DNA of 64,000 bases. Source: Schistocephalus solidus. Taxonomy: Eukaryota > Platyhelminthes > Cestoda > Diphyllobothriidea > Diphyllobothriidae. Positions 10,756 to 48,582 of the stretch are shown piece after piece (positions within the stretch are counted from its first letter, which is position 1; every line of letters begins with the position of its first letter). The stretch is taken from positions 1 through 64,000 of the forward strand of contig WEDG01003466.1 in the NCBI GenBank assembly GCA_017591395.1, written 5' to 3'. Made by a program: the position numbers and the translations under genes. The notes under the pieces are model-generated. The model ran no database searches and was not told the origin of the DNA. It saw nothing but the letters and a program-made list of their open reading frames with translations.

Positions 10756-10756
10756 A

Positions 10757-18591: not shown

Positions 18592-19021
18592 TTAACCAAA
18601 ACGCGGCGGCAACGGCACGGGCTCCGGATGGGTATCCAGCCGTAGCCAGCGTTCACTCAGTGCCCAGAGCAGGCTGCGCGCTTTCTGTCGCTGGGCCCCC
18701 TCCTCGGGACTCCAGGCAAGGCAGCGTTGGAGGTCCTGATAGACAGGCGCCCCCGCGACTGCTGACTGTGCGCCCGTTAACTCCACAGCGGGCGGTTCAG
18801 CCACCACGCACATAAACTCTGTCGAGGCAATGCGCTTGGGCAGCACACGGGTGAGAAGGTGGCCAAGGTTGAGAAGACCCCGTCCAAAAGATCGAAAGAC
18901 ACGCGCGAATGCGCCTTGGTGAGACTGATGATCAATGATGTCTGGTGGAGAGGTTCGGTTGACTCCCGGGTCCGAGATCAGCACCGAGACACCGGAGTTG
19001 GCCATTCTGGAGGCGAGTTCA
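18592..19021 (-). CDS. SDR gene, C-terminal exon
   Basis: Acceptor catttcgccttttag. One base completes the two left over from the previous exon, then ELASRMANSGVSVLISDPG follows in frame, exactly where SDRs continue after the YxxxK helix. It ends in a stop at 18592-18594 after 143 codons. Confidence 0.68.
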
Positions 19022-22000
19022 CTAAAAGGCGAAATGAGACCATAGTGAAAACACTAGCAAGGAATCTAACATAATCAAACTGCCCCAACCCGAGGCGTCC
19101 CCGCTGTCACCGCCACTGAAGGCATTCGAAGTCATCAAGAGTTTTGGGGGTGTATTTGATCGGATTTGCATCGATAAATCGAGTGACGGTCCCTTCGGAA
19201 AGATGGTTTAATTGTTTTGAGCGTATAAACACGAAAGATTGGCAGTCACATCAGTGGGCAGAGCGTTTAGATTTGCTGAAAAGTGCGGCCGACATACACG
19301 CAGGGGTATAAAACGCACTGAACGTGGTGAGTGACGTTGGCTTTCGTTTTGGGTACCCAGAGCGGCTGCTGGTGTTGCAAAGGCGACGTCCCAATCTGCA
19401 CCGCGTGCCTTACTCCCTCTCCCCAGTCTTGAGAGCTTATAAAAATTGGCTGTCGCCGACCTGTCCCTACTGCGAGATAGGCAGATTCCGTTTGTGTAGA
19501 TCCAACATTAGGACATTGGATTACAGGCTGAAGCAAAGCGAGGGAAGAATTTACTGAAATAAGCAAATAAAGCGACAGTGCAGTACGAATGTGGCAAGTG
19601 AGAGTACCGAGGCTTTACCGTGCTTATATTTGACCCTTCCCATCATTTGTCGTTTTATTTCATCCCAAATAACTCTTAGAGAATATCAGCTATGTTCCAT
19701 ACACTTTCATGGTTTACATGCTTTAGCCCGTACGTGTTGATTCCTGCTCCCATTCTGCTTCACCATCCACGTGAATGTAAGTTGGAACATGTTTCCTCAG
19801 CCCTCATTCCTATTACACAGTGACAGGTAGCAATAGCAAAGCTCCTCCCCCATTACGAAAGCTAATAAGACCAGTCCTCACTGGAAATGATGTCATACGC
19901 CCGTGATTTACGTTAATGTTCAACGAACAGATTCCGAGTTCAAGTTCACCCCCCCTCCCACAAACCTAGGGTGAAAGTACGACTCGCTGAAGAGGGTAGA
20001 CGAGCCACAAACAGCCTTCCTTGTTTGGTCGGCACATTGCTGAGACCAGAATCCCACAAGAGTGAGATGAAAAAAACTCATAAAGATGGTTCCAGTCGAG
20101 AACAAGGGGTGAACTACTATGTTGGCGGTTTCTATTTTGTGTGTTTTTCCCAGACTGGTGTCCAAGGGACAGTTTTCAGGGGCGTACCCCTCTTCACCTC
20201 GGTTGGACGAACGGGCGAGGAAGTAATTCTAAAAGTAGAGTTGAGGTGACGGCAGCATGAAAGAACTCCAGTTTGGGGCTTGTGAGAAGCCAGTTAAAAC
20301 TACTGGGATCCAATCGCGTACAGAAGAGCCTTAAAAGGGGCGACCCGGATGCGTACTTACAATTCCGTCAGTAGACACTGGCTCGGGATAGGGTATTGCT
20401 GGCAGGAGACGCCAACAAAGTTAGCAATCTAGGTTCGAATCCCAGATAATCCAAACTCGGGATTGAGCATGACTGGCTGACGACGGCTGATAAGCTAAAA
20501 ATGGCTATTGTAGTTTATCTCGTCTGTTCCTGCATAAATGCGTGTCGATAGGTGACTTCCTACAGGACTCTAAAATTGGGTCCCAAGACACAACAGGACG
20601 AGCAAATCCCGTAACACGATTGAGTAACGCCCTTCCCAAGATACGGAATATTCCCAATCTCGCAACTGACAGGAAAGGGGCCCAATGGTGAAGCGTAAAA
20701 GAATGCGGGTTCGAATCCAAGTTTACCGGAACCTGAGATTGGGTATGCCTGACTGATCACGGTTAACAAGCCAGAAAGTACTATCCAAGTTTCCTTTATC
20801 TCCATCGACAGTTCCCATCTGCATTACTGTCGAATTCTGTTTCGGTGTCCTCGTCAACAATAGGCAGAGAAGACCGAATGACTAAAGTCCATGTGCTATA
20901 AAGATGTCAGACAGGCTGCAGTTGGGTCCAACTGCAGAAAAAATAGAGGGTGGGACTATGCGACGAGAAAATATGATGAACTACACAGTATGACACTACT
21001 TGCTACGGCTGCGATCATGCCGGATCAACCCAGCCTCAACGATGTCGCTTACCGTACCTCTCCATGTCTGGCGATACACGACAGCAGATCTGAACAGGTT
21101 AACCCATTCTCTTCACCAGCGACGGAGACCGAACACTGAAGGTCCTAGAACCACTTGCATGCCTTGACAAACTGTGTCGAACTAGGTTTTGAGCTGACCC
21201 ACTCTTCTATTCCCCGAAGTAGATAAAGGTGCCGAATAGAGGGCATTAATACTGAGCTCGTGAGGTGGACGACGAAAAAGGTGCCTAACTACCCCAGTCT
21301 TCTTTCTTGGATGACCTGGAACATCCTAGCGATGTTGTCGCAGTGAATGAGAACTGTCTCATTTGAGGCGATGGTTCGGAAGCAGTGGTGGTGAGACTCG
21401 AATTTTCACTCATCTCCCACGACACAGCCCAGCATTCACAACCGTCGTGGCGATGGATACATCGCATTGGATTTTGAGGCCTTTTCTAAGGCAGGAGAAA
21501 ATCCGGCAAACAGCACTGATTTAGGAGACAATGTCGTCCTTACTCTGTACATTCGACAGCCGCCTCGCCTGGAGGTATTTCAAACGGTCTACCTCTTCAG
21601 GCTGATAACAATTGATCCCGAGAGGACCCTTCTCCTGGTCAGGGATTCATAGTGAAAACACTTTGACCTTTATGGATAAACCAACCTATGTGGCGACTTA
21701 ATTCACCCGCGACACTACGGACTGCAGACGAACATGGGAATACGAATATCTGAATATCTTATCAGGACAGACTAAAACACGCCGACTCGGGAAAAAAAGT
21801 ACCGGAAACGGCGCTTGATTACGTCCAATAAAACCGTTAATTAACGCCCTTCACAACGTCACTTCCAGCCAAGAGCCTCCAATTAGCGTAAAAGATGATA
21901 TAGCGCAAGTAGCACGATACAAAGCCTTAACCGACTTCCTCCTAAAAGCACAACAGTAGGTGACGAGGAAATAAACTAAGTCAACAGTGCTGGATAAGGA

Positions 22001-25000
22001 GATCTCCGTGAAAAATCTTGTGTATGGAGTTGAGCAGATGGAAGGAGCGAAAAGGCAGGAAGCCTCAGAAGTGTCTGAACCCTAACGGTGCTGCAGGCGG
22101 AGCGAAAGATCGACTTCGCAAACATAAAAATACTTGAAGACAAAACAGCAAATTATGCACCGAACACACGCACATACACACATCTGCAAGGCCTTCTCGC
22201 GGATGAATAACAGTGAAAGTAGTGACAAACAAGCCGTCATATAAGAAAAGGGAGGTATTCCAATCAATTTAATCCCGTGGCATGCGATCCGTAAAGGGAG
22301 CATCACGTGATGAGACGCCGTAGGTGGCGGGCGCCCCGTCTCTCTGCCGTCGCTAAATAAAATCGACGGAGGGTACACTCGTGTGATTTTAAGTGCGAGG
22401 ACGAGGGCTGCGAAACGAAAAGCTCGACGCTGTTATCGTCGTCTCCGTGCGCACGCACAAGGCTCCGACATCATCATCATCACCAGGAGAGACGGCACCG
22501 AGGCAGAGACAAGTGCGCGATCGTGTGACGGACAGGCATGTATGCAAGTGTGACATCACGTGACTAGTCGGCTTGTAGACTAACGGACAGGCACGGCTGA
22601 AATGCGGGACACGCACAGCACTCGAAGGCCGGTAGCATGCGCGCACCTCAAGCAGTGTGAGACAAAACGGCAGTGAGCACAAGCTTTTAAAGCTTGTTTA
22701 AAGACGACGCCCGCGAGAGGGGGTCAGCTTGCTGCCGGAAGGGATAGCTCAGGGCGGGAAGCCCAGTCACACTGACTGTGACGTGTGCTTTTGGTGGTTG
22801 ACTCCACTTCCAACAGGAAAAATGAGAGGACGCAAAACCTGATAGGCAGAGGCAACTTTCTCCGCCGGCCTGAGCACGTGTTATACCGCGATAAGTTTCG
22901 GAGGTGTCTTCATCAGCCAGTCACTGAGTCAACGTAGGACTGTTGGTGGGTCAGTTATTAATGTAACACACCCTGTCCGCGCGGTAGCGCAAAAAATCAA
23001 CCTGCCGTAGGCCCAGGGGGTAGACAGCTTCACTAAACGAGAGATCGCGCAAGATAAATGAATAGCCCTCTATGCTTTTTGTGCATCAGAATTCAGCAAA
23101 AACGCACGCATACAACAGCCTTGTTAGCGACCAGGATGCACTCCATTTCATGAATGACCAGATAAGCACGGTGGTAGGATGAATGAGCAAAGACAACAGA
23201 CTAGTGATACACCGAGAGTCCCGGATTGTTTCCTATTCTAACGAACAGGTTACTTCTGTTAAATGTTAGGCAAAAAAGGCCCAAATGATTCGAGATTGAA
23301 TTGCCGATCCCTGAGCAGGGGGGGGGGGTCTATCGCAGCAGTCCTGGCCCACGGAGTGGGGGCAAGAGAGTGTTCAAAGTTATATGAAAGTGGCGTTAAC
23401 TGGTCTGATCTGCTTTAGAGTTTGGGTACGACTGGCTTAAAACGGTAATAAGTCAAAACAACAGTTCCAATTTTTCCGGCTGTTATCCGTAACTGAAGAG
23501 AGAGAGAAGGATCCTTGGAAGCAGGTTGCAATGTTTCGGAATTGTCGAAGAGCAGGAAAGTTAACTCCTCACGAACGATGATGTCATCCCATGTGCCAAA
23601 CAGCGTGGTGGGTGCAGGACGTTAAATTGCACACTCTCTCCTTCCACCTTGGTACAGTGGCAAAACAGACTCAGGAGGACCGGAAGCGGGATTGAGTGCA
23701 GTGACTGGCGAAGCTAAGCAGCCCATAAAAGCGTGGTAACTGGATGTGCCCTGGTATGCGGTCATGTTCGCAGACAGAACAGAATACCTAGAGTCTGCGG
23801 TCGACCGAAATAACTACTAACGAAATTCCCACTTTTCTAAATATTGTTATTTTTACTAAAACTCAAACTTTACTTAGACCTCTGGCCACGGACAACAGCC
23901 GAGTAACTGCGGTGTCCCAAAACGATAGTCGAGTCCTCCCTATTAGTCTTTAAATCATGTTGGTTCGAAGGTGCTGCCAAACTGTCAACCGTCTGCCCTC
24001 GAAGCGAATATTTTTATCTGATCACACGTCCCACAAACCTCCTGAGAAGTGCTAATTTTTCGAACTCTTTCCCCAAGGCGACACCGTCGTCAAGGTGGTA
24101 GGTTGAGAATTTGGAGGATGCCGGCGGCAGTTGACACTGCTCCAAAAACCGTTTTAAACTGACATTCAGCAAGAAATGCAGCTTAACTCAGGCGGACACA
24201 GGTTACAGACAGATGTGCAACATCTGAGGCGCACTTTTTGCTTTATCAGTCTCATAAGGCGGTACTGACAAAGACAAAGGAGACCGGAATGGTCCTTTCA
24301 GGCTTAGTAGCTGTCATCAGCCAGTCATACCCAAGCCAAAGTGTGAAACACCTGGGACTTGAGCCCGGGATCTTTGGTCATTGAATCGGATGCCCTATTA
24401 ATGAGCAACGGGCCCGTTGTCCTGTCGGTTGGGATCGGACATATTATTTATAGAAGATGGGTGCTCATCAATCAGGTTAGGCAACGTGCTTGTTCCGTTA
24501 TATCTTAGAGGTCATTTTAGAAGCCTCGCAGGCAGTGGCATAGCGATTAATGGTATAGGCAGATAAGGTGGTACCCACAAATATCGGTGAGCATTCATCT
24601 ACCATCACTAATATTTTTGATTACAGTCAACAGGACAACTAGCCCGTGGCTCATTGGTAGAGCACTTGACTCAATAACCAAAGATCCCGGGTTCGAATCC
24701 CAGTCGCTGCACACTTAGGATTGCGTATGCCTGACTGCTTAAGGCTAATATGCCCGGAATGGTCATTCCGGTCTCCCTAGTCGTTGTCTGCATAATCTTA
24801 TCTGCTGACCACATTAGCCGCTATGCGACTGCCCGCGGGATTTTGTGTATGAACTTTAAGGCACAGCGGGACGAACACGTTACGTAACCTGATTGGCCAG
24901 TCTTTCTGACGCCAGCTGTTAAAACGTGAAGACTATGCACGCGATAAATAGAGACTCTAATGAATGCTAGGAGCAAAAGACGACCGTCGATGACCCGCAC

Positions 25001-28000
25001 ACCCAGTGTTCATTCCCCGTGACGGGAAAACGCAAACGACGCCAGATGGAATTGATTGTTATTGGTAAAAAAGGTGGAAAATTAAACCGGAGACGGAGAA
25101 GCAACCTACGCCAGGGTCGATCTTGAACGTAAATTCACGCGCGCAAAGGGGCACAAAGGAACATATCATGCAGATGGGTTGGCTTACGGTGTGAACTACA
25201 GGCCACGGCTTGTGTGCGAATGTGCGGTGAAAAAAAAACTCGTAAGAGCGCCATCGCATGCAAGCGAAGAGACGCAAAACGAAGGCAGCACACGCATCAG
25301 TGCATTGACTGACGGTACGTGGAAGGCTTTACTGAACTTCACGGCTCCCCCCTGCCGGCCTTGGTCCCGCGGCCGGTTGAACTAGCTGAAAGTTAGTAGC
25401 GCTATAAAGAGTTATTTCCCACCCAAGAACAGCAATCACAATTAACCGGTCTGATATTTTTTTCCTTTTCTCTTTTTCCTTGATCAGCCCTCCCCCTTCA
25501 CCTTAGACATGACACTGTGTGCGGTCACAACAGACAAGGAATTAACAATTTCCGCGGCCTTAGTGTATTCCTTCAAGCACGTCTAGAGTCGCATGGTGGT
25601 CTTTCGGGAGTCGAAGTAGCCCGTTATAACTGATTATTTCCGTTCCCTTCAGACTAAGCCTGTGATTTGGGTGATGAGTGGAGGTCAACGACCTGTCGAG
25701 TCAGGAGATATGAAAAAGGTGTTTGAATACTTTCGTGAAATGGGCATGCTGAAAGTGGGGATAGACCGCGTGCTAGTTGTGCGGTGAGCAGGTCGTGTGA
25801 AGCACGCGTAGACGGGTGTTGAGTTCTAACAGCCACTGTATCCAATCCCATCACCAAATACTTGAAAAGCTCTGACAGTCGACTGATGTGTAAGAGATGG
25901 CAGAGAGAATGAGGTCGACTCTGGGAACTGCATCCCTCCCCAAGGCACGTCAGCGAATTCTCGCACAAAATGACGAGGCGACTCGATCATGTTGAAACGG
26001 GTTGTTAATTGATAACACTGTGTATCGCTATCTAAGTTTTGCGTTCTCGAAGCCTCTGCCTGACTGCCTGTATTAAATTTGCCTCACAGGTTGCTTTGTC
26101 ATTTGTCAGGGCAGTTTTGCCGGTCCCGTGTGAGTATACCAGGACGTCTAGTTGATTGCCAGACAGTGAAGCTTCTATGTTGCCCTTGCAGCGCCTTGCT
26201 GTCCTATTGACTAACGGTCACCTGTAGTGACGTCATCACAGAAGGCGCTCACGTGAACGCTCCTTCAGCCCTACGCCAGTTACCACCATGGCCCGAATCT
26301 CCAGAATCAGATCTTGCCTCCGAAGTGGTGGAGCTCCTGTACCTGATTCAGATGTATTTACCAAGCTTCTGTGGGGCAGAGAGGTGTTATCAAGATATCG
26401 GAATGGCAATAACTACATCAAACCCGAGTGACAACGCAGAACGCTGAATCACATGGCGGGGATAGGTAAGTTTGTGCACTCTCTCCTCGGTGAGCTGCGC
26501 CAATCCCAACGGTTACAGAAAACGGAGTACAACCTTGAACAAGCTACAAATACATAGATTTGCAAGCCAGACCCACTTGATTTTTTGGTTAACCGTTTCG
26601 TTGGACGAAAGTAAGTACCTATTTGCCGTAAACAGGTGCCAGTTGAATTCGAACTTGGCCAATTTTATCTTTCACAGCTTGCCTGTGGAGATTTCGCAAG
26701 TAAAGCCAGGATCTGATGCGTGTTAATTCACTCCAGAAAATGAAGTTCAGTAAGGGGCGTTTACTGCCCATTGCTGCTGGCTGCATCAAAATGGTCGACA
26801 AAATAGCAAAAAGTTACTTAGCCAGTCCAGTAAGCAGACTAGCAATTATTTTCTATCATAGTTATCCGGGAGATTACAAATACATTTGGCTCCAAATATT
26901 CATCCGTCAGTAATGCAGACGAACACAGCTACCGCATGAAGCAGTTGTGACTCTCGACTCATCTACCTCACTCCTTGTCAGAATCAGCATGCTCAAAATG
27001 TATGACAAATCCAGAACCACTGAGGACAGTCCTACTAAAACCGAAGCTGACTTTAGGTGCAAAGTCGCTGGCAAAGCAAAGACACACCGACTAACTCCAT
27101 CTAGATTCGTCTGGCCCTCGAAGAGGTTGTTAGGGTTTGGCGGTTGTGCCCCGAATAGCGCGTCTCGGAGTCATAGATTAAAGTTGGGTGTTATGTGGGC
27201 TCAAAAGGGAATGATCAACTCGCGCAACCATACATTTGGTGCAGCTCTCAGTCTATGAACGTGACTATTTCTTCTAGTAGCCCCATTAAATGCACCTGTG
27301 GTTGATTATCTCGATTGAAAATTTTAGCGATGCCCTTCCTCACTTCTGTGATGCAATCCATGTCGAAATAGCGGACACAAGGTGAAAACGAAAGACAGAC
27401 CGTCTGATAATGTTGCGAGAAAGAGAGGAATATAGTCGGTCAAATGCGGTTAGAGAGGAGGCATCTTCTGCGAAGCTAGCGGCAGGCCCACGTCAACTGC
27501 TGAATAGAACAAACGATTACACTATCCGCGGAGAGCAACTCCGTTGTTGCGGGGTGCACCCTGCTCCCAGCGGCGCATCGGACCAATAAGAAGCGAGCAG
27601 GCATCGAAGTTAAGCGCGAAATACATGAGTCAGACAGGGTAGTCAACACCACCATCGTCGTGGCGACGACGCGATTGGCAACAATGTGGCCGTGTTGACA
27701 AAGTGACTCATTCATGAGGAAGTCCGCTTTGGCTCACCATGTCGCACGAGTCTAGTACAGCAAAAGATACCATGCTTTCGGGGTTGGTGGCGGCGTAAGA
27801 GGTCAGAGGGGGTACGTGACACCTGAGTAAATACGCATCTGTTCCTCACAGTTTATGACCTCCAGAATGTCGAATTATTTCCTGAGCACACAAGTCCCGT
27901 TCTCCGGAATCTATCCAGTCCAAGTTAAACATAAATAAATGGCCTCGGATCCTTGTGAAGGATAACGTTGCCAGTTAAAGAAAACCTTCGGACCTTACTG

Positions 28001-31000
28001 CAGGGATTAATATGCACGGTTCACTTGAGAAATTATATATGAGAGGAAAAGTTCATCTCGGAAACTGTGACTGTACTGCTCTGAATATTGAATACAGACC
28101 AGCTTTCGTAGGTGTAAGTAAGAGCGAGTGGCAGAAGGCTATTTTCGACTTATTTGCCGTCATAATTTAGCCATACCCAACCCCGGGTTTGCATAATCTG
28201 AAATTGAGACGTGGACTCTCTGGCCACAGAGGACTAAGTCTTGTTGGTTTTGATCGGGAATTTAAACCAGTCGCAGGAGGGTGTTCGCCAATCAGGCTGC
28301 AGAATGTACTCAATCTACAACTCTTGCAGGCAGCCATGCAGCAATACCGACAAGGACAAGGGGGACTGGAATGAACAGTTAGGTCTCATTAGCTATCGCC
28401 AGCCAGCTATACCCGACACCGGGCCTGGCTGACTTGGAATTCGAACCCCGGTTATATGGTCATTTAGCATGAACTGACAGGACAACAGGTCTGTGGCTCA
28501 ATGTTAAAGCATTGGATTTAACAACGCTTGATGATTAAATAATCCATGGGGGTCATTATTTCAGCTTACTTATTTTTGCGATCGCAGCTAGCCGGCCTTG
28601 CCGTCATTTTTCCGGGGTTGAAGGAAGAATTTATAATCGTGGGACCTTGCTCGATCCGTCTGGGCAGACAACTGCAAGGCTAGTCGGCTGACCCAGCTAC
28701 TGCGGCACCGCTGGATGGACCCAATCATATCAGCGAACCCATAAACGGGTGACTTTAACGATGACTATTTGCTACCATCTTCCCTTTCGATTCTGTTCGT
28801 AAGATCAAACCGCATTTCTGTGCTGAGAGCGTAGATTACGTTGGCTTATCGTGGTTTTGTGACATGGAGGCATCTTGGAGGTGACAATTTGGGTGCAGAT
28901 GAGAGGTAAACTTTCGGGCGTGTGCGAAGGAGAACATAGTCTGACCCATGGGCGTTATCAGTTTCAGTAACACATATCGAGCTGCTATCACGAACAAGGC
29001 TGCGGAACCTTGGCTGACTTCAATTTAGTCAATATGACTGGATGTATGGTTGTCCTGGTAAGTGTTTGTGGCGGTGCTGAAAGCTCGTGTCGGTGAGAAT
29101 TAGTTCTCATCAGCAAAGTCCAACATCCTCTTAACATAGTCACACTAAAAGCCAAATACAAGGCGGTCAATGAGGTGATAGTTTAAAGTCACTGGGTCCA
29201 TTTCGACTATTGTATATACTATTCGACTGTCACGTTCAAAATGTCCACCGTATGCAACACAGCAGGGTGGCGGTGACGGCGACTTGAGCCAGATTATAGT
29301 GAGAGTAGACTTGCACTGCATCTACACCTCTGTTCCACTCCCCCACGGTGTCAATAAGAATGGAGACGGGAGAGGGCGAAGACCCACGCACAAAGACGTG
29401 GGGCGGCTCGGATCCCAGCTAAGCGGGAGGGCCATTAAGGTCACATAAAGGACCTATTGCTGTCTGAATCTCAGTTCGGGGGACCGAGTTATTCCCTCAG
29501 CCGGCAGATTTCCAAGCCACAGCTTTTAACGTACCGTGATATTTTCAAGCGCGTCAGATTGTTTACAGCGAGGAGTATGCGCTGAGACTGTCGGCCTCAC
29601 TCTCCCCCACCCTCAGCATCAGGCCACCGTCCGAGCCGGTCAGCTATCTGATGCGGGAGTGGGGTGCAGTGGCTGAAGAGTGTTCAAGGCAATGTTGATG
29701 AGTGTACTCGGTTGACGAAACTCGAAATTCAATGTTCATAGGGTCACTGCACGATCCCATTGAATGCATAATTTGCAATGCTGACCAGAGACATCAATTA
29801 ACCGTAGCTTTTGCCGGTTACCTACCCAAACTTCGAAATTTAAGGAAGAGACTGATCTTCGGAAAGTCGATAAAGACTATATGGTTAGGGTAAGACCACC
29901 TTGTTTAGCTCATACGGTGAAAATGCGAGTTTGGATTTGAAGATCCTTTACTTGATGAGGCAAGCTATCTTCTTCAACAGCGCAGTTCGATATAACTCTG
30001 TATTTCGTGACCGGTGGATACAACGATCGGCTTTATACTAAGGATGGTTTTCTGAGATGATATCATGGTTAAAAGACAGGACTGCGTACTTCTTAGCACA
30101 CCCAGGTGTAGTCAGCTTGTAGACAAGGGGACTAAAGTATCTGAACCAGCAACGCCAACCGCTTGGACGCCCCCAAATGACAGAGTGTTGGGAATCGCCG
30201 AAGGAACAGTGTGGCTGACAGAGAGACTGCCATTGAGCACCTTGCAATCCCAAAAACTGCCAACCGTACATAAGGCAAAGGCGAATAATCAGGTACGGCG
30301 TCCAATTCGGCCCTAAATTGTCCCAGTTTGCTGGATGTATTTCCCTGGAAAGCCCTAGTGATTCAAGTACCAGCAAGTCTGCGAGCAGTGCATCATTTAG
30401 ATTGGGAATTTAAAATACTGGGTGTGAACACGACAAATGACTAACTTTTCAATGTTTTTCCTGTCCTTGGAGGTGCAAATCAACAACCTATGGTATTGGA
30501 GAAGGGTCAAAACAAGCCAATTGTTACGAATTCCCAGATAATTCTTCGGAAGGTGGTTCAGACAGACCTTATTGCGAAACCAGAAACAAAGCTTCTCCGA
30601 CCATTCTAGCACCCAGCCACCAACAGCAGCCCACGGCGAGAGGATATTACAACAAAATTTTGCGACCATGGGAAAGTTTATTTATCGCGCTGGTCGGTAG
30701 CTGATGTTGGTGTGCACAGAGCGACGACAGAGATGTTCGGAAAACTGCTTTTCACTCGGACGTAATCCATTCGGTCGTTGACGGGTCCTCATCCAAGTAG
30801 TTCGTGGTTTGCAAGTTGCGAATGAGCGATCGCCACCAGAGGATTAATTTTGGTCACTATGGTATAAAGTGAAGTCGGAGCTTAACCCCTGGGACCTTTA
30901 TTTCCGTAGAGCATGAGTTGGAGGTTCGGACTTCGGACAGACCAGCAGACGCAGACATTATACTGAGGAAGACAGCGCACCCTCGTATGTTGGGTATAAG

Positions 31001-34000
31001 AGACCAGTAAAGTTCAGCACCTAGAGTCCGCTCGCGATTGAGTAGTACAGATTTGCACTATTCGGTAACGATAGGTGACGTACAGCACCAAGAAAGCCAG
31101 AAACCCCAGGCTCGTGTTTTTATTCATGTTCAACGATGAAAAAGTAAATGTTTCCCACCAGAACAATTATCCTTTTTACACCGATGTCGAAGCAACACCA
31201 TTCTACCGAAGTCTGTGCGGGTGAAACCGGCAATGAAGTTATCCCATGGCTTTCTAATCGCAATTTGCAATGGTTATCAAATTTTGGAGCTTTTGCAACA
31301 AATGCGCTACATCGACTTCGTAAATTCAAGGAGCAGAAATAACAACACATACAATTTTGCAAGGACCATATACACCGCATATTACCAGCTGTAATGCCCC
31401 ATCCGTAAAACCCCTATTACTACCAGTCCCGTATTACACGAGGCTGGGGTTTCTGGTTTTCTTGGTGCTGTATATAACCTACCGTTATCCACGATTCTCT
31501 CACACAATTAGACCGGGGTTGCGGAGGCCATACCGTGGGTCGCAATACTGTAATTAGACATTTCATGAAGTTTCTTAGGGATTTATAATACGGGTGGGTC
31601 CCTAACAGTCGCTCGAATTGCATGTTTTAAATTGGCTCCTGTAGAATTTTGGAGCAAGAACCAGGCCACAAGGTCGCAGTGGCAAGAAAATTTGCTCGCA
31701 ATGTCATAGTGTCGTCACGGGACTTGCGTTATTTCATAAGGCAGTCCTTCAAGTCCTGGTAATCTCGTTGATATTGGTCGGCTAATGCTTATTCGTCAGA
31801 CCCGAGAACTTGCTTATTTCACAACTAACTTCCGTCGAGGGCCGGTAACTAGCAGCTAGACCACCGGGTAACCCGTCTTCTCACCACATCAGCCAATGCG
31901 TCGTCAGACTACCTGACCCAGGTAGCTAATGAAGACAAAAGGCTGTGGCCAACAGCCACAATCAAGATGTCCGGCGTCTTTGTTCAACGTCTAGCTCGCC
32001 TACGGCAACACGCACAACTGGAATACGAACCCACAAAAGCAGCCGCAACCACAGACCGTCTCCAAGGCATGACTCAACACCGGAAGCACCCGCTCTGGTC
32101 TTGCCAGTGGCTACTGCTGCCTGAGGCAGACATGGAAAACTCTCATTACGGGTGGGGCATTACAGCGAGTAATAGAAGGCATATATGGATGGTCCTTGCA
32201 AATTTGCATGTGTTGCTCTCTCTTCCCTTGAATATACGAAGCCGAGAGTGCGCATCCGTTACAAAGGCTCCAAGAAGTTGACAAGCATAGCTGTTAGAAA
32301 ACTCTAGGATGACTTCATTGCCGGTTTCACCCGCACAGATCTCGGCAAAATCCTGTTGCTTCGACGTCGGTGTAAAAAGGATGATTGATCTGGCGTGAAA
32401 CAGTCTCGTATCGCACACTTTTCCATCGTTGAGCATTCAGCAAAACACGAGCCTGGGGTTTCTGGCTTTCTTGGTGCTGTACATAACCTACTGCTACCCT
32501 GTTTTTTGCATAAATGATGCCTGTTGTAGACAGGCACAGCACAGGAGCAGACGGAGGGACAAGAGGCACCTCAGAGATCACTTGAGGGAGGGAAAAGACT
32601 GCGGAGCAACAAAGAGATGAGGACCGCAAACAAACACGAACCGCTTCAAACTAGAAGCACATTTAAAACAGAGCACCGAGCTTTACTGGAGGAAAAACGT
32701 ACTCTGCAAAGAGGCGCAGGGCCCATTGGGATCGCTGATAGCCCGCTGCCGGCGTATAGCCACTCTCCCAATTCCAGTTTTCCGCGGGCAAGCATATCTC
32801 ACCCGATTCTGACCTCTCAGCTGTCATCTCCGCGAACTTGGCCGCTCGTGTGTCCAGCAGGAAGACGACTCGAGCGCCATCTCCGTCTGTCGCAGCGGAG
32901 CGCAGGCTAGGCGCCAACAAGCGGGTAAGGAGGTAGAAGGCGAAGTAATTTGTGCCCAGTTGGTGTTCGAAGGCGTCGTGTGTGGGCCGTCGAGCACCCG
33001 CGACCACACCAGAAAGGAGGGCGGGGGGTTGGAGCACAAGTCGATCGAGGTGCGGATAGTCATGGAGGATGGAGCCCGCGAAGCGCCGAATGGAACGCGT
33101 GCTGTCTAGGTCTAGGCGTCTACAATCCACGTGCGTCTCCTCCAAACCCGCGGAGCGCATCAACTTCGAACGTACGTTTTCACAATCATCGACTGAAGCC
33201 GAGGTCAGGATAATTACGGCGTTGCGTTCGGCTAACTTACGGAGCAATTCGCTTGACATTCGGCCTATATGGATGTAAGAGAAAATAGTTATGTAGACAA
33301 GCATATCTGCAAACTTTGAATGACGATGAGAACACCAATTCCGATAAATATATGAATTGGATTCGCGGTAATCGTAAGGGAGGCTGAGGACGAACAGTTA
33401 TCCCAACGATGAGCTTATTGATGCAGCAACCCCGCTACGCTTGGCTCGTGGTCCAGACTCTAGCTGGTGGCATAGCAACCAGCAAACGGTAGCTTCAGCC
33501 AATCTGGGGCATACCACCAAAAATATATAATTAAAAGTTGAGAACGGCCTATCAATTACATATTTTCGATCAAGTCAGACATAAAGGTCAGTGCACTTCG
33601 AGGCAACCCAAATAAACTGTCTAGGGTCCAAATCTTTGGGCATCTCAGTCCGAGGTCGGGGCAAGACTGCAGATGATAGCTGATAGGCCAGAAACGTTCA
33701 TTCCAGTGGTATACATTAGTCAAAGACTATAGGATGCGCCTACATTTGCGAAGCCAGAAAAAGGATAGTCACGAAGAGAAACGTGAACCAGGCCGTCCTC
33801 CTAACGTGTTGTAAACCCATCTTTTGTGAATTTGTGGGGTAATTCTTCCCGATTAAGAAAATGACACACCTGATATTGCCGCAAAACACGGTCGGAATGC
33901 ATACAGAATTAATAATTATTTCGATACGATCCCAGGTGTGGAGTTCTTCTGCGCGCAATATTGTTCTGGTGGAAACGCATACAAAATGGCGAGATAGCCG

Positions 34001-34327
34001 CTCCCGTCGGACAGGTTGTTGGCGGATGAGAGACACGCACACAACTGTAGGCGATTGACCCTAGATATCCCTTAGATTGATCACACAAAGGACCCGCTGA
34101 TAGGCAGAAGTGGGGGACAAGTGGTTACAAGCATGCATCTTACTGGTGGCCTCCGTCACGAGAACTACTTTGTCACGAATTTTCACCTCAGGACCGTCAT
34201 AGGCAGGCGCCCGGACAACGAGACGATAGAGGATGATGCCTCCACCGGCTGACGCGACCGCTACGGCGGCGCCTTGTAGCCATCGCCACACTGTCCAAGG
34301 CTTCTTGAGGGGTTGGAGCGGGCGAAC
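18592..34327 (-). CDS. Short-chain dehydrogenase/reductase, retinol-dehydrogenase-like, degenerate active site (5' exon missing)
   Basis: Three exons were joined: 34327-34144, 33264-32703 and 19021-18592, with introns of 879 and 13,680 nt. The phases (1 then 2) match at both junctions and give 391 open residues plus a stop. Residues 1-60 have a hydrophobic anchor (about 20-40, GAAVAVASAGGG) followed by RDKVVLVTEATS, the first beta strand of an SDR Rossmann fold. The middle exon keeps DLDSTRSIRRF, the LGTNYFAFYLLTRLL helix and ARVVFLL. The last exon keeps SDPGVNRTS (family xxPGxxRT) and a C-terminal LWALSERW like that of RDH/DHRS enzymes. The hallmarks are changed: TGxxxGxG reads TEATSRMS, NNAG reads LQPPA, the catalytic Ser site reads LLDTRAA, and YxxxK reads YQRSQ. 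No Met opens the first exon, which starts at an acceptor (ttttcag), so an upstream exon is expected. It could be a pseudoenzyme or an old pseudogene still open; I favour the former weakly. Confidence 0.68.
19024..20379. other. Intronic DNA, nothing recognised
   Basis: Part of the 13.7 kb SDR intron. No repeat family member and no coding motif recognised. Short frames at 19267-19566 on both strands overlap each other and look like chance. Confidence 0.35.
20380..20850 (+). repeat. tRNA-like repeats in head-to-tail tandem
   Basis: Two units in direct order. B-box-like ggttcgaatccca at about 20434 is followed by gattgagcatgactggctga at 20462. Then comes acgagcaaatcccgtaacac near 20593, A-box-like sequence, ggttcgaatcc at about 20709, and gattgggtatgcctgactga near 20735. 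The spacing of the equivalent points is about 273 bp. The order (B-box, conserved body, acgag...cgtaac, A-box, B-box) shows the repeat can be tandem or circularly permuted rather than a simple one-ended SINE. Confidence 0.6.
20985..21650 (-). mobile_element. RTE-type LINE 3' fragment (family 2), in the SDR intron
   Basis: On the minus strand this matches the 3' part of the LINE at 38.2-41.3 kb. It shows the YLGARLLP-region remnant near 21640-21540, DGCECWAVSWE near 21440 (family YGCECWA), the EAFDHHCLRTIL equivalent near 21370, and the terminal segment with ttgctacggctgcgatcatg at 20998. It is shortened, frameshifted and non-functional, and lies antisense on the + strand within the long intron. 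Confidence 0.65.
21651..23399. other. Intronic DNA, nothing recognised
   Basis: No gene motif recognised. Contains an 11-base G run at 23318-23328 and a purine/pyrimidine-mixed CA-rich stretch near 22165-22185. Confidence 0.35.
23400..23500 (+). repeat. Fragment of the tRNA-like repeat body
   Basis: gtttgggtacgactggcttaaaacggtaataag followed by ttccaatttttccggctg corresponds to the body downstream of the B-box in other copies. Strongly diverged, and the tRNA-like half is missing. Confidence 0.45.
24230..24560 (-). repeat. tRNA-like repeat, minus copy of an inverted pair
   Basis: Reverse complement reads in order: gcctcgcaggc-type end, cgttgc, aaccgacaggacaacgggcc, A-box-like ctcattaatagggc, ccaaagatcccgggctc, acctggggtt-like body, gtatgactggctgatgacag, ggaccattccggtctccttt and gtcagtaccgccttatgaga. 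It is one of the most complete copies in the window. Confidence 0.65.
24600..24930 (+). repeat. tRNA-like repeat, plus copy of an inverted pair
   Basis: The tRNA-like part is 24642-24710, with A-box tggctcattggtagagc and B-box ggttcgaatcc, both near-canonical RNA polymerase III promoter boxes. The body follows: gtatgcctgactgcttaag, ggtcattccggtctccct, ctatgcgactgcccgcggg and gcgggacgaacacgttacgt. It diverges from the facing minus copy at 24230-24560 (head to head). No full cloverleaf with paired anticodon stem forms, so this is a repeat and not a working tRNA gene. Confidence 0.7.
24931..28130. other. Intronic DNA, nothing recognised
   Basis: Still inside the long SDR intron. Several open frames of 60-104 codons (for example 25654-25968 minus and 26947-27258 plus) show no family motif or splice-supported context, and I read them as chance. 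Confidence 0.35.
28130..28510 (-). repeat. tRNA-like repeat fragments, minus strand
   Basis: The minus strand from about 28510 reads ctgacaggacaaca-adjacent A-box remnant, then a ccggggttcgaattcc B-box at about 28435-28450, then ggctggcgatagctaatgag and ttccagtccccctt. A second body fragment (ggctaaattatgacggcaaa) lies at about 28150-28175. Confidence 0.55.
28511..31064. other. Intronic DNA, nothing recognised
   Basis: No coding or repeat motif recognised. Open frames at 30038-30376 (minus) and 30065-30316 (plus) overlap on opposite strands and lack motifs. Confidence 0.35.
31065..31488. mobile_element. MITE-like element with ~50-bp terminal inverted repeats (copy A)
   Basis: The left end, starting gtaacgataggtgacgtac and continuing agcaccaagaaagccagaaa, pairs with the reverse complement of the right end (ataacggtaggttatatac, then agcaccaagaaaaccagaaa). 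The match runs through accccag and ctcgtgt, about 50 bases with few mismatches. The interior (about 320 bases) is AT-rich with no transposase. A partial second copy in opposite orientation lies at 32145-32497. A target duplication was not identified. Confidence 0.65.
31590..31760 (+). repeat. Dispersed repeat shared with 47.3 kb
   Basis: ggtgggtccctaacagtcgct, then attggctcctgtagaatttt, aaccaggccacaaggtcgca, and ataaggcagtcc match in order the segment at 47290-47490 (ggcgggtgcccacaagctgct ... aaccacaaggcagtggtgg ... ataaggcagtcgg). The family is unknown. Confidence 0.5.
32145..32497. mobile_element. MITE-like element, truncated copy B (inverted relative to A)
   Basis: The interior and the right terminal repeat (acacgagcctggggtttctg, gctttcttggtgctgtac, ataacctactgctac) match the reverse complement of copy A. 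The left terminal repeat is missing: similarity starts near gtggggcattacag at about 32150. Confidence 0.6.
32703..33264 (-). CDS. SDR gene, central Rossmann-fold exon
   Basis: Acceptor catccatatag, donor GTACGT, 562 nt and open throughout. It restores frame with the exon at 34144-34327 (split Ser codon). It holds the segment from the glycine-loop remnant through YQRSQWALRLFA. The overlapping open frame that starts further 5' reads into the intron. Confidence 0.7.
33620..33725 (+). repeat. Degenerate tRNA-like repeat body
   Basis: gaggtcggggcaagactgc, atgatagctgataggccaga and cgttcattccagtgg follow the order of the conserved body (ggttgggtatgactggctga, gacggctaataagcc, ggtcattccggtctcc). Weak and isolated, it lies between the first two recognised SDR exons. 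Confidence 0.4.
34144..34327 (-). CDS. SDR gene, exon with membrane anchor and first beta strand
   Basis: Acceptor ttgccttttcag, donor GTAAGA within an ACC-A|GT junction, phase 1 at the end. It encodes 61 residues, including a hydrophobic anchor and RDKVVLVTEATS. The second Gly-motif position is Glu instead of Gly. Confidence 0.65.
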
Positions 34328-37979: not shown

Positions 37980-40900
37980 GGTCTGGCGAATAAGCAGTCG
38001 CGGACCAGGAAAGACAGTGCCACCAAGGTGCGACGGGCTGAGGTCTGGTACGCCAACAGCCCTATAAAAAAGCCGCAAAGCCCGATGACGGCACTGTGAC
38101 CTGGCGAGTGCGAACCGTCATTAAATAAGTTCGCTCACCCCCGCTGCCTTGCGAGTAGTCTCTTGAGCCAAAGCGCTAGAGGAGACAACCTCAAACAAAC
38201 AATCCAAGCGGCTGTAGGGGACCGCCCGTACTCAATCCCCACAACACCTCATGAAAAATATTTCCGAATATAGTTTTACGATCCATGCTACGGCGTCCGA
38301 CGCGCTCCGCAACCCTAGTCCAGTGGTGCGAGCGAAAAGTGTGCGAGCTGGACTACTCAATCGGAATCGGACCCTTGGTATTGGATACTGGAATGCGCGA
38401 ACGTTCCTGGACCCTGGTACCCAAAGTATGACGGCGCGCAGTCTTTATCAGTACAACGTAGATGTGTGCTGCCTGGCAGAGGTCCGAATAACTGACTCAG
38501 GCTCTGGAAATAAACATACCGGGAGGCAACTCACACTTTACCACAACGGCCCTCGCGAGTTTTCTGGTAGGCATGGTTTGGCGATTGCCCTCTCGCAACA
38601 AGTGAACCGTGCACCGCTTGCTTGGGAACACGGCAACTGACGGATGGCCTACGTGCGACTGAAAGGTCGCTTCAAAAACAGCTCTATTGTCTCTGTGTAC
38701 GCACCAACTTTCACTGCCGAACAGCACGACAAAGAGACGTTTTACTCGCAACTGCAAGCGTTAGTTGAAAAACTTCCGCGCCACGATCTGCTACTTGTCG
38801 CTGGGGACTGAAATGGCCGGACTGGACGTGGTGACTCCACTAACAGTCATCTTATTGGGCGTTTATGGGCTTGGTTCTCGATGCGAAAATGGTGGGAGAC
38901 TGCTAAACTTTGCTGACCAGAAACGACTGTTTGTCAAGAACACGGGCTTCCAGCACCGCAACAAACACCTGCTGACCTGGTATTCAAACTACGGTCATAC
39001 GGCCAGTCAGATCGACTACATTCTAGTCAGTTCACAGTTCCGCAGCTGGGTTCATGATAGAAGTTAGATGGGTGGTGCCGAGACTGGTAATGCCTATGGG
39101 TCTGACCATGTTCTCGTCCATACACGCTTGAAAGTGCTCCTATCATCCGTACCCAAAAGGTCACGTGCTAGACGCCCAGATGTCGCCAAAATCCGGCTAC
39201 CCAGCACTGCCGAGGCCCTGTTTTACTACCCGAACATACGAAGAAGGCAGTAGTGAGTGGTCCTCACTGAAGACATTAGTCTATGGGGCACCTGAGAAAA
39301 TTCTTGGGTATACTCAGCGACACCGCAGTGATTGGATCAGCGGAAGAACCTTGGTTTTCGGCCCAGACGGCTCGAGCCAGGTCCCGCAACAATGCTTCCT
39401 TTCGCCAAACCCGAAAGATGATGGCAAAATCGGCTTGGGGAAGACCGGAAGAAATATTGGGCCTAAATAGCGAGCTCAATGGAGCAGGCCTCAAACGTAG
39501 GTGACACCCGAAAACTCTACCAAATTACCCGCCAAGTTAGTGGTAGGCCCTCTACACTGAGCGACTCTGTTCGTGACGTGAATGGCAGCTTTATTGTTGA
39601 AAACCCGGCCAAGGTCGAGCACTTCGAGAACCTTCTCAACTTCGATACCGAGCCCAGCACCCCCTTACCACGTGCAACGGAGTCTCCTCCCTCTCCTGCC
39701 TATGCAGTCATGCGACCCCCCTTCTGAAGGAGAAGTAACTGATGCCATAAGAAGGTTGCGCAACAACAAGGCACCTGGAGAGGACGATAGACCATCTGAA
39801 ATCTACAAGTATTGTGTCGACACACTGGCGCCCTGGCTCCATAAAATGATTGCACAAGCGTGGCGAGACGAGGTCGTTCCTGATGACTGGGGCTTAGGCA
39901 TCCTTGTACCTGTCCCCAATAAGAGAAACAAAACGAGATGCGAAAGCTACGGGGGCATATGTCTTATCGACGGTGCTGCTAAAATCTTCGCTATTGTCCT
40001 TCTCAGGCGTTTCCAGGCTGTGCACGACTCTAGGACGAGGCCCAACCAAGCCGGATTCTGTGCTGGACGTGGATGTGCGGACCAAACATTAACACTAAGG
40101 CACATCCTTGAATCACGCTATAGGTAACAGCCACCGACGGCCGTCTGCTTTGTCGACTTCGCCGCGTTCGATTCCGTCCATCGTGAATCCTTATGGTGGA
40201 TAATGGCCCTAGATGGTCTATCATCGAAAATCATCGCCATGATCAAGGCCTATTGCAGCTCAACCACTGCGCGAGTTTGGTCCATAACAATATTTCACAA
40301 CCATTCGGTATTCGGTCTGGCGTTCGAAAAGGTTGCATTTTGTCGCCCATCCTGTTCAACTACGCTACTGACTGGATTCTTGGGAAGGCCCTGCATGAAG
40401 AGGACGGTGTTGAGCTTACACCCGGACGCCGGCTGGCTGATCTCGACTACGCAGATGATATCGCCTTACTAGCTTCAAGGTTTGGTGATCTGCGGGTGAA
40501 TGAAGTCGCTAAATCAGTCGGCTTGTCCATAAATGAGGGGAAGACCAACGTTTTTTCAAGCTGCATCCCTGCCCAAATGAAAGCATCTCTCGAGGTTGAT
40601 GACTGTCAACTTGAAGAGGTAGACAGTTTCAAATACCTTGGAGCGAGGTTGCTGCCGAATAGACAGAGTAAGGATGACATTATCTCACGAATCGATGCTG
40701 CTCGTCGGGTTTTCTCAAGCCTTAGAAAGTGCCTATGGACACGACGCGACATTTCTATCGCCACAAATATTCGCGTATATTGTGCGTCGGTCCGGTCTGT
40801 CCTTATCTATGGCTGTGAATGCTGGGCTACACGCGTGGAAGATGAGCGAAAACTGGAAGCATTTGACCACCACTGCTTGAGGACTATCCTCCAAGTGAAG

Positions 40901-41290
40901 TACACAGACTTCGTCTCAAATGAGACAGTCCGCACTCGCTGCGAAAACATCACAAGGATATCCCAGGCGATCCAAACGACGAATGAGGTGGTTTGGGCAC
41001 ATTCTTCGGCACCTACCTCACGAGCTCAGTTTTACTGCCCTTAATCCACTCCCACTACCGAATTGGAGGCATCGAAGAGGGGGTCAGCTCAAAACCTGGC
41101 TGGATACCGTTCGTCAGGACATGGAAGTTGTTCTTGGACCTTCGGTATTCGGTGTCCTTCGTTGGCAAAGAGAATGGATTGAACTGTCCATGTCTGCTGC
41201 CACGAAACAACAAGCGTGGAAGGGCACAATCCGTGACATAATCGAGGCCTGCTAGCGCAGGCATGATCGCAGCCGTAACAAGTACAAGTA
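37980..41290 (+). mobile_element. RTE-type LINE, near full length but broken (family 2)
   Basis: The frame from 38251 opens the endonuclease with GIGYWNARTFLDPG and VDVCCLAEVRI (metal-binding Glu). Stops at 38640 and at 38809 (GDWN has become GD-stop-N) and a shift near 38850 break it. SQIDYILVSS and GSDHVLV close the domain near 39010-39120. The reverse transcriptase starts near 39730: RRLRNNKAPGED, RPNQAGFCAGRGCADQ, FVDFA, GVRKGCILSPILFNYA, and DLDYADDIALLAS with an intact YADD near 40450. The thumb/C-terminal part (SFKYLGARLLP, YGCECWA, RRMRWFGHILR, RGGQLKTWLDTVRQDMEVV) ends IEAC-stop at 41255. A short A/C-rich tail (acaagtacaagtaaatacac) follows. The catalytic RT core is open but the polyprotein is not, so the copy is inactive. 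The 5' limit near 37980 is a guess. Confidence 0.8.
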
Positions 41291-45315: not shown

Positions 45316-45822
45316 CTAAGTAGAAAACAAGAGGGAGTCATCAAAAGACGCATAATCGGTTTCCATACTCTCTTCAACCTCAATGGTTCGAGTTATTTCC
45401 TCGAAGAGGTGATTCATGGCAGCAGAACTTGGGTAATGTTCGAGCGCGCGCAGAGAGCTAGAGGGAGGACTGAAAGCAGATGGCGAAGTGGCTGCAACGT
45501 TGCGTGGAATGGAAGCAGAGAACTGGCCACGAGCAATGTCACCGAGACGTAAATTAGAAGCACCTGAATGATCTAGAGAGTTTAGACCTTGGGCGGTGCG
45601 AGGTAGGGTTTCACCTAGGTCAGAAATATTAATTGGAGAGGAGGCAGAGACTTCATCATATTCTTCTTCGCCCTCTTCGTCTTCATCCTCTTCAACTGGA
45701 GTGCCAAAGCTGGAACGAGTAGTGTTCAATTGGCGACGATCCGAGCCAGAGAACCGAGGGGGTTGGCTGAGTGTCCGACCTGCCCGACTATCACGCGGTG
45801 TTGGAAGGGCTTGATCAAAATC
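45316..45822 (-). CDS. Terminal exon of an unrecognised gene with an acidic tract
   Basis: The exon follows an acceptor acaccttttttattag on the minus strand and is open for 168 codons from DFDQALPTPRD to a stop at 45316. Features in order: a basic, Pro/Arg-rich start; an uninterrupted acidic tract (EEDEDEEGEEEYDE, about residues 43-56); a Ser/Pro-rich middle; and a C-terminal part with HLFEEITRTIEVEESMETDY. No known domain is recognised; the pattern suggests a disordered, probably nuclear protein. Upstream exons should lie above 45822 on the minus strand but I could not identify them; a GTACCA donor near 45869 is only a possibility. Composition and length argue against chance. Confidence 0.5.
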   Translation of the reverse strand, partial: DFDQALPTPRDSRAGRTLSQPPRFSGSDRRQLNTTRSSFGTPVEEDEDEEGEEEYDEVSASSPINISDLGETLPRTAQGLNSLDHSGASNLRLGDIARGQFSASIPRNVAATSPSAFSPPSSSLRALEHYPSSAAMNHLFEEITRTIEVEESMETDYASFDDSLLFST

Positions 45823-47660: not shown

Positions 47661-48331
47661 CGTATCCACAGAACCACGAGACACTAGGGTTATGGCAGGC
47701 AATGTTTGCGATAAAACACCTCAAAAACTATAGAAAGCGGGTAGGTTCTGTAGTTTCATCCCTTATGAGCAATACGCCTCGGCCTTGTAAAAAAACATTG
47801 AATCACTTTGCTTCTGATGGAAACAATAAAAACCTCTTGAGGCCTGTAGCAAAAGATGAGTAACGTTTGGCATCTTTAAAATTCAAGAATTCTGCTGTTT
47901 CTAGAGCCATAACTGTAAAAGTATCATATTAAAGTTTCTTAGGTTTATACCCTGACCCATACTTCTACGAGCTGCGCATAAATGAAGGAAACGTGAAGGA
48001 ACTAACAATTAAAGAACTAGAATAAACAGTAAGAAGTTAGGGCGAGGAGAAGAAATAGACGACATTTGCAGAGGGTGAAAAAAAATAAAAATCGAAAAAA
48101 TCTAACTGAGTAAAATGGCTGAAAATTATTACTTAGGGAGGACTCCAATCATTCAAACCGGGATCGTATTTTCAGCTTACAGATGAGGTTAATTGGGATG
48201 TTACGTGCTGAAGAGATGTTTCGGCCTCTGCAATGACTCGCTCTTCATCAAAATTGTCCGATTCCGTAAAGATCGATGCAGAAAAGTTAAATGGATGGAG
48301 CCGGGGGAAGTACAAACTGGAAGAAAACATT
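47661..48331. other. 3' flank of the SMIM8-like gene, nothing else recognised
   Basis: No coding motif recognised. This lies downstream of the minus-strand stop at 48332. Confidence 0.35.
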
Positions 48332-48582
48332 CTAATCCCAATTGGAACTATGTTGGTCTAAGGGTGATATTTCGTTTTCTCTGAAATCGCGAGTGACGAA
48401 GTTGTAGGCGAGGAATCCAGTACAAAAGATGAAGCAGGTCACACCAAAGACCACAAGATGTTTGTTCTGCAACAAAAATAAAGGTAGCAAACGTTGCAGC
48501 TTACTGGTTTAACGAAAAGCTCAAAGTTGAGCAGTCAAAACAAAGACGTTGACGTTACAGGAGGAGCTTTTTTTTCTGGCAT
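48332..48582 (-). CDS. SMIM8-like small membrane protein, interrupted by an in-frame TGA
   Basis: Two exons, 48582-48505 and 48466-48332, are joined in phase 0 across a 38-nt intron (GTAAGC...TTGTTGCAG). The product is 70 codons. The first exon reads TSTSLF, a TGA codon (48537-48535), then LLNFELFVKP. The second reads NKHLVVFG, a hydrophobic membrane span of about 18 residues, and a tail ending SSNWD before TAG. Human SMIM8, as I recall it, has TTTLFRAVNPELFIKP, NKPVMAFG, a membrane span and a terminal SKWD, so motif order and spacing agree across the splice. The TGA falls where the relative has Arg, so one CGA-to-TGA change would explain it. The first in-frame ATG is at 48582, after an upstream stop, and the N-terminus is shorter than in the relative. 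It may be a recent pseudogene, a polymorphic null or a base error. Homology is from memory of a short family, so moderate confidence. Confidence 0.55.
48467..48504 (-). other. 38-nt intron
   Basis: GTAAGC donor and a pyrimidine-rich TTTATTTTTGTTGCAG acceptor. Its removal joins FVKP to NKHLVVFG, matching the continuous SMIM8 motif. It is similar in size to the 33-nt intron at 1916-1948. Confidence 0.6.

What the first reader, a model, noticed from the sequence alone, without database searches (positions are those of the whole stretch)
18592..34327. SDR gene with all catalytic motifs replaced but splicing and frame intact
Seen: three exons on the minus strand join in phase across 0.88 and 13.7 kb introns, giving 391 open residues with a recognisable SDR order. 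Known: classical SDRs need TGxxxGxG, NNAG, a catalytic Ser and YxxxK. Here these read TEATSRMS, LQPPA, LLDTRAA and YQRSQ. Inference: loss at every site while the frame stays open over about 1.2 kb suggests a pseudoenzyme kept for a non-catalytic role, or a very old but lucky pseudogene.
Basis: partly seen in the sequence, partly recalled or inferred. Interest (0 to 1): 0.75.

Follow-up and report, generated by a model that had tools for sequence, protein, structure and literature searches.

The report
Conserved enzyme-like flatworm protein, probably inactive
A tapeworm gene that databases name after a vitamin-A enzyme has lost the parts needed to hold that enzyme's helper molecule, yet tapeworms and flukes share the same altered version, so it is very probably a working protein with a different job.

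Summary
The window is Schistocephalus solidus (deposited protein 99% identical). It is not a lucky pseudogene: searches gave orthologues in 8 named cestode species (this one included) and 13 named trematode species, with matching replacements wherever covered. Over 32 aligned rows the TGxxxGxG glycines are E/Q and R/K (23 rows cover them) and S/T (28 rows), NNAG is gone, and the YxxxK lysine is Gln in 32 of 32. Correction: catalytic Tyr and helix-4 Asn are kept (31 of 32 each) and the active Ser is probably Thr. The coenzyme side is destroyed, the substrate side largely kept. 22 family rows form one clade against 9 canonical rows (100/100). Best reading: a membrane-anchored pseudoenzyme from the RDH11-14 (SDR7C) group, fixed before cestodes and trematodes split, binding a ligand or partner without redox turnover. 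Activity loss, localisation and function are inferred. The exon at 34327 has no in-frame start codon; a spliced-leader AUG probably supplies it. No dN/dS, RNA-seq or structure model could be made.

The parts
34144..34327 (-). First SDR-coding exon (called C): VRPLQPLKKP basic stretch, hydrophobic anchor AAVAVASAGGGIILYRLVV, beta-1 strand and start of the degenerate glycine motif (TEATS). No in-frame ATG between the upstream stop and the acceptor.
   Evidence: V[RK]PL start shared by orthologues
33265..34143 (-). Intron 1, 879 bp, phase 1, GT-AG
32703..33264 (-). Second SDR exon (D): RMS..., QPP (was NNAG), GTN (Asn kept), DT (was SS), YQRSQW (was YxxxK) to LFA
   Evidence: six family proteins end just past this donor by reading through it (P0034, P0035, P0036, P0038, P0043 as LFAE, P0133 as MFAEW)
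19022..32702 (-). Intron 2, 13,681 bp, phase 2, GT-AG
18592..19021 (-). Last SDR exon (E): DELASRM... to LLWALSERWLRLDTHPEPVPLPPRFG and stop
   Evidence: tail conserved to flukes
45316..45822 (-). Upstream exon B, Ser/acidic-rich, phase 0, with its own stop at 45316. A deposited S. solidus model (P0001) leaves it at 45379 and joins it to 34327; whether that join is real is unsettled.
48181..48330 (-). Upstream exon A, MFSSSLYFPR...DEERVIAEAE..., ATG start, donor GTAAGC phase 0; conserved in Hydatigera, Taenia and Hymenolepis-like models. Either the first exon of a long form or a separate upstream cistron.
   Evidence: (tblastn E 4e-9 with the P0007 N-terminus, 7e-8 with that of P0003)
48332..48466 (-). 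Last exon of a small membrane protein resembling SMIM8 (DUF4500), whose TAG stop lies one base before the ATG of exon A: candidate upstream cistron
   Evidence: Pfam DUF4500 E 0.048 only, below its cut-off

Best explanation
This is a single-lineage pseudoenzyme of the RDH11-14 (SDR7C) kind, probably RDH13-derived, carried by tapeworms and flukes. It keeps the N-terminal membrane anchor, the SDR core order and the substrate-side residues (Asn, Tyr, probably Thr for Ser), but it can no longer hold NAD(P)H in the SDR way: the glycine loop carries E/Q, R/K and S/T, the probable NADP-binding Arg and NNAG are lost, and the catalytic Lys is Gln. Most likely it sits in a membrane (the mitochondrial inner membrane, if it behaves like RDH13) and binds a lipid-like ligand or a protein partner without redox turnover. 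The mRNA probably starts by spliced-leader trans-splicing onto the acceptor just before 34327, the leader's AUG giving the first Met. Shown: gene, orthology, single origin, fixed replacements, hydrophobic anchor segment. Inferred: loss of activity, localisation, ligand or partner role, leader start.
For: Orthologues: 23 hits, 11 of them family; 204 hits, 120 listed, 31 of those family; worst family E 9e-71, best other 2e-26; 37 hits, 26 family; worst family E 3e-88, best other 3e-19. Motif counts over 32 rows. Of 283 columns compared, 42 are fixed at 90% or more in 97 canonical rows; of these 17 are fixed on the same residue in the family, 5 on another residue, 20 are not fixed; 48 columns are fixed only in the family. 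Tree: family 22 rows 100/100, cestodes 100/99, trematodes 91/93. Anchor: best 19-residue hydropathy in the first 75 residues 1.27 to 1.82 in 8 family rows, 1.15 to 2.32 in 3 canonical rows. RDH13 sits in the mitochondrial inner membrane facing the intermembrane space (PMC7022914, passages). Leader AUG: PMC12582326 (passages); one protein, on a 1,583-nt contig, reads M|VRPL (P0025).
Against: Asn, Tyr and probably Thr remain, so some chemistry cannot be excluded. No structure model, no activity data, no dN/dS, no reads. RDH13 rather than another SDR7C member is not shown: the family joins the two insect RDH rows only at 87/84 with long branches. The leader start rests on one contig plus lack of a genomic ATG; conserved upstream exons could supply the start instead.
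Confidence: 0.62

Rival explanations
1. A cofactor-free enzyme: as in bacterial halohydrin dehalogenases, the coenzyme pocket was remade and the surviving Tyr/Thr/Asn with invariant Arg239 and Gln241 catalyse a non-redox reaction.
For: Asn, Tyr and Thr kept while residues around the Tyr are invariant: Arg239, Gln241, Trp242 in 32 of 32. Halohydrin dehalogenases are SDR relatives with Ser-Tyr-Arg, no nicotinamide site, and motif T-X4-F/Y-X-G, where the second Gly is replaced by a bulky residue (PMC4989007, passages); here the same place holds R/K.
Against: The dehalogenase motif S-X12-Y-X3-R is not present (Gln at Y+4, longer Ser-Tyr spacing). No substrate or activity known. The third Gly is lost too. 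Arg239 also occurs in some canonical rows (YGRSK in P0047), so it need not be a new catalytic residue.
Confidence: 0.13
2. A divergent but still active NAD(P)H-dependent dehydrogenase, as the database name 'retinol dehydrogenase 13' implies, binding coenzyme in an unusual way.
For: Several family records carry that or a like name in sources. Tyr and Asn are kept.
Against: Lys is Gln in 32 of 32; glycine positions are E/Q, R/K, S/T in the rows that cover them (23, 23, 28); both NNAG Asn positions lost in 32 of 32; the Arg fixed in the canonical rows after strand 2 is kept in about a quarter of family rows.
Confidence: 0.08
3. The functional product is a longer protein: exon A (48330-48181) and exon B (45822-45379) are cis-spliced to 34327, adding about 200 residues before the anchor; no leader start is used.
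For: Exon A is conserved in Hydatigera, Taenia and Hymenolepis-like models. Several deposited models join upstream sequence to V[RK]PL. Phases fit.
Against: Of 17 models that reach V[RK]PL, 16 have residues before it, and these differ in all but one pair; in 6 of the 17 the last one is a Q that could be a read-through CAG acceptor. Exon B has its own stop. Codon position 3 GC is 0.44 and 0.38 in A and B against 0.63 in the SDR exons. Fused operon models are a known artefact in these worms (PMC12582326, passages).
Confidence: 0.33
4. An old pseudogene kept open by luck.
For: Catalytic motifs lost.
Against: Orthologous open frames in 21 named species with invariant residues, tree in step with the two classes.
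Confidence: 0.01

Closest known systems
Retinol dehydrogenase 13 / SDR7C family (RDH11-14)
   Same: N-terminal hydrophobic segment at a similar place, order of motifs, Asn and Tyr, C-terminal LWxxSEKWTRL shared with two insect RDH rows. Two introns of phases 1 and 2, where human RDH13 has phases 122222 (PMC9859523 Table 1, passage); positions not compared.
   Different: Glycine loop, probable NADP Arg, NNAG and catalytic Lys replaced in the family; extra tail LDTHPEPVPLP; about 12 more residues between the Ser/Thr and Tyr positions than in the insect row (counted).
HSDL1 (conserved inactive SDR of vertebrates)
   Same: A conserved SDR reported as an inactive enzyme (title of Meier 2009, seen only as a reference of PMC9859523).
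   Different: A different SDR branch; its defect is a changed catalytic Tyr (recalled), whereas here the Tyr is kept and the coenzyme site is lost.
Halohydrin dehalogenases
   Same: SDR descendants without a coenzyme site, with the catalytic Lys replaced (PMC4989007, passages).
   Different: Bacterial, Ser-Tyr-Arg triad; here N-T-Y-Q with a hydrophobic anchor segment, reaction unknown.

Membership tests
SDR superfamily (Pfam adh_short) | Profile match above the curated cut-off | tested here: met
   38.9 bits, cut-off 26.6; 28 of 31 family members match at E 0.01, though two scanned singly fall under the cut-off (P0007 22.6, P0133 26.2 bits)
Classical SDR enzyme | TGxxxGxG coenzyme loop | tested here: not met
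   Gly positions E17/Q6 and R17/K6 of 23 covered rows, S27/T1 of 28 covered rows
Classical SDR enzyme | NNAG motif | tested here: not met
   Second Asn position is Q27/H5 of 32, first is I/L/V in 32 of 32
Classical SDR enzyme | YxxxK | tested here: not met
   Tyr 31 of 32 kept, Lys 0 of 32, Gln 32 of 32
Classical SDR enzyme | Catalytic Ser | tested here: not met
   Aligned with Thr in 30 of 32 (A 1, M 1); one residue of alignment doubt, in which case Asp199
SDR7C (RDH11-14) by descent | Groups with animal RDH sequences against bacterial relatives | tested here: inconclusive
   Joins two insect RDH rows at 87/84 if rooted on bacteria; 9 canonical rows only, long branches
RDH13 | Mitochondrial inner membrane, retinaldehyde reductase | not testable with these tools
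   Only an N-terminal hydrophobic segment was seen
NCBIfam PRK06197 (nearest curated SDR model) | Score above 268 bits | tested here: not met
   63 to 89 bits in 5 family proteins, 269.3 in the canonical insect control
Halohydrin dehalogenase | S-X12-Y-X3-R and T-X4-F/Y-X-G | tested here: not met
   Gln at Y+4, R/K and S/T in the loop; motifs from PMC4989007
Pseudogene | Disrupted or freely drifting frame | tested here: not met
   Open in the window; invariant columns across 32 rows
Gene under purifying selection | dN/dS below 1 | not tested
   No coding DNA of relatives was fetched; conservation was judged on proteins only

The most novel reading that the evidence does not exclude
A parasite-lineage SDR has become a coenzyme-free enzyme: the NAD(P) pocket was rebuilt around the new Arg/Lys of the former glycine loop to hold another anionic ligand, and Tyr, Thr, Asn with invariant Arg239 and Gln241 carry out a non-redox reaction at a membrane, a second independent origin of what halohydrin dehalogenases did in bacteria.
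Probability: 0.1. Interest if true: 0.78.

Novelty: new variant of a known kind. Interest (0 to 1): 0.5.

Why it matters
The same loss of coenzyme site and lysine is shared by tapeworms and flukes (21 named species hold the gene), while several database records still call the protein a retinol dehydrogenase. That could mislead readings of retinoid metabolism in these worms. It also gives a clean test of why an enzyme fold is kept after its chemistry goes, in a lineage where RNAi is in use (Schistosoma; the SmRAR work, PMC11879061, passages).

Tried and rejected
Pseudogene: rejected by orthologues. Intact RDH copy in the own genome: the PF00106 search gave 20 exon matches (54 candidates, 19 scored). 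It did not list the window's own exons, so it misses weak ones. Loci L001-L013 cover 17 of the 20 matches. I read L001-L008 by eye: they look like DHRS7-, KDSR-, HSD17B10- and HSD17B12-like genes (names recalled). L009-L013 I only compared by tblastn with two canonical RDHs and the window protein: L009 and L013 gave weak hits (HSD17B12- and HSDL2-like by eye), L010-L012 none. The best RDH hit over all 13 loci was E 3e-5. So no intact RDH11-14 gene was seen, but 3 matches were not fetched and the direct protein search did not complete, so absence is not shown. Trematode version of exon A: not significant (with a cestode profile the S. haematobium model ranks 2nd and the Opisthorchis one 526th of 566 reported, the rest shuffles), though it looks alike by eye. 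Structure prediction: switched off. dN/dS: no coding DNA of relatives. Literature: no paper on this protein seen in the listings; a Spirometra proteome names a 'retinol dehydrogenase 14' (PMC10481575, one passage), which may or may not be this protein. Rows dropped: P0001 was replaced by the window itself; the tree also left out P0009, P0024, P0034-P0038, P0042, P0043 and P0133 (pieces, faulty models or near copies); the canonical set (97 rows, 240-350 aa, ten ids left out, many of them bacterial) was drawn from hits similar to the family.

Full report
What is there. The window is from Schistocephalus solidus, a diphyllobothriid tapeworm: a deposited S. solidus protein is 99% identical to the spliced product (taxonomy) and the window lies in a 603.7-Mb assembly. 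The exons are 59 to 61% G+C, the introns 45 to 48%. Pfam adh_short matches above its cut-off.

It is a conserved gene. A search with the window protein gave 11 family proteins of 23 hits; a profile search gave 31 family proteins among the 120 listed of 204 hits; a second profile gave 26 of 37. A wide gap separates the family from the other hits (E 3e-88 against 3e-19). Named species: Schistocephalus, Sparganum, Hydatigera, three Taenia, Hymenolepis diminuta and Mesocestoides among cestodes; Paragonimus (two), Opisthorchis, Calicophoron, Trichobilharzia, Heterobilharzia, four Schistosoma, Dicrocoelium, Fasciola and Echinostoma among trematodes. Some records are pieces: those of Fasciola and S. 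spindalis lack the whole glycine loop, those of Mesocestoides and Echinostoma hold only its last glycine position. In the tree the 22 family rows used are one clade (100/100), with one cestode clade (100/99) and one trematode clade (91/93): the gene is older than the split of the two classes.

What was lost and what was kept (window plus 31 orthologues). First glycine of TGxxxGxG: Glu 17, Gln 6 of 23 rows that cover it. Second: Arg 17, Lys 6 of 23. Third: Ser 27, Thr 1 of 28. The second NNAG asparagine: Gln 27, His 5 of 32. YxxxK lysine: Gln 32 of 32. Kept: catalytic Tyr 31 of 32 (Phe in Trichobilharzia) and helix-4 Asn 31 of 32 (Ser in Taenia crassiceps). The active Ser aligns with Thr in 30 of 32; the strand before it has one extra residue, so Asp199 (32 of 32) is the other candidate. 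Arg239 and Trp242, next to the Tyr, are invariant; Trp is new against the canonical Leu, whereas Arg also occurs in some canonical rows (YGRSK in P0047). The arginine that the canonical rows fix after strand 2, by general knowledge the NADP-phosphate contact, is kept in about a quarter of family rows. So the coenzyme half is gone and the substrate half largely remains. This is not simple decay: of 42 canonically fixed columns 17 stay the same, 5 are fixed on another residue and 20 are loosened, while 48 further columns are fixed only in this family.

Origin. The best NCBIfam model is PRK06197 in all six proteins scanned; five family members score 63 to 89 bits against 269 for a canonical insect RDH. 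The N-terminal hydrophobic segment and the C-terminal LWxxSEKWTRL are shared with insect RDH rows. Rooted on the bacterial rows, the family joins the insect rows at 87/84. Intron phases 1 and 2 fit the RDH11-13 pattern 1222.. (PMC9859523, passage), although positions could not be compared. I read this as SDR7C descent, probably RDH13; the exact paralogue is not proven.

Expression. No reads could be examined. Four unnamed proteins (P0006, P0025, P0027, P0029), whose longest contigs are 1,471 to 1,888 nt, run across the second splice junction (FADEL), while six other family proteins stop just past that donor, as a read-through would. The four are therefore probably spliced transcripts. This is inference: the intron lengths in those species are unknown, and I take source code lgn to be read assemblies.

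Where translation starts. The exon at 34327 begins in phase 0 right after ttttcag and has no in-frame ATG upstream. Of 17 family models that reach this point, 16 have residues before V[RK]PL; these differ except in one pair (P0004, P0005), and in 6 of 17 the last is a Q that fits a translated CAG acceptor; one short contig reads M|VRPL. Flatworm spliced leaders end in AUG, cis- and trans-splicing often share acceptors, and operon genes are often fused in models (PMC12582326, passages). A leader-supplied Met is therefore my favoured start. Against it, a conserved exon A (48330-48181) and an exon B lie upstream in phase and could make a long form. Exon A follows, by one base, the stop of a SMIM8-like gene, so an operon is plausible here; the SMIM8 match is below Pfam's cut-off.

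How it may work. With RDH13 as the model (inner mitochondrial membrane, PMC7022914, passages), an anchored protein that keeps its substrate-side residues but cannot hold NAD(P)H would bind or sense a lipid-like ligand or act as a partner subunit. That is inference. Precedents: HSDL1, reported inactive but conserved (title seen), and halohydrin dehalogenases, SDR relatives that lost the coenzyme site and gained another chemistry (PMC4989007, passages).

Verdict. Real, conserved, probably mis-named and mechanistically open. The pseudoenzyme reading stands with the correction that the active-site Tyr and Asn survive.

Noticed in passing
48582-48332 (-): A small two-exon gene resembling SMIM8 (DUF4500) ends one base before the ATG of exon A, a possible operon. 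Its first exon holds an in-frame TGA in this assembly (strain defect, assembly error or decay). In Taenia crassiceps (P0009) a DUF4500-like piece (E 3e-4, below cut-off) is fused upstream of the same exon A.
   Followed up: partly
45316-45822 and 48181-48330 (-): Exons A and B encode an acidic, Ser-rich protein with a DEERxIAEAE stretch conserved in cestode models; it may be its own gene with a stop at 45316. A Pfam scan of the Hymenolepis-like model that holds exon A found only adh_short.
   Followed up: partly
40187-41044 (+), 57153-57713 (-): Retrotransposon pieces: reverse transcriptase (RVT_1, E 2.7e-9) and an endonuclease-like stretch (E 1.3e-4, below cut-off); 8 other frames scanned with them gave no Pfam match.
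   Followed up: no
6523-6996 and 10362-10820 (-): Two open frames about 3.8 kb apart share a nearly identical stretch (CEPPPASGHLFMTHFLATSFVRRQAVLSLN...), probably a repeat family.
   Followed up: no
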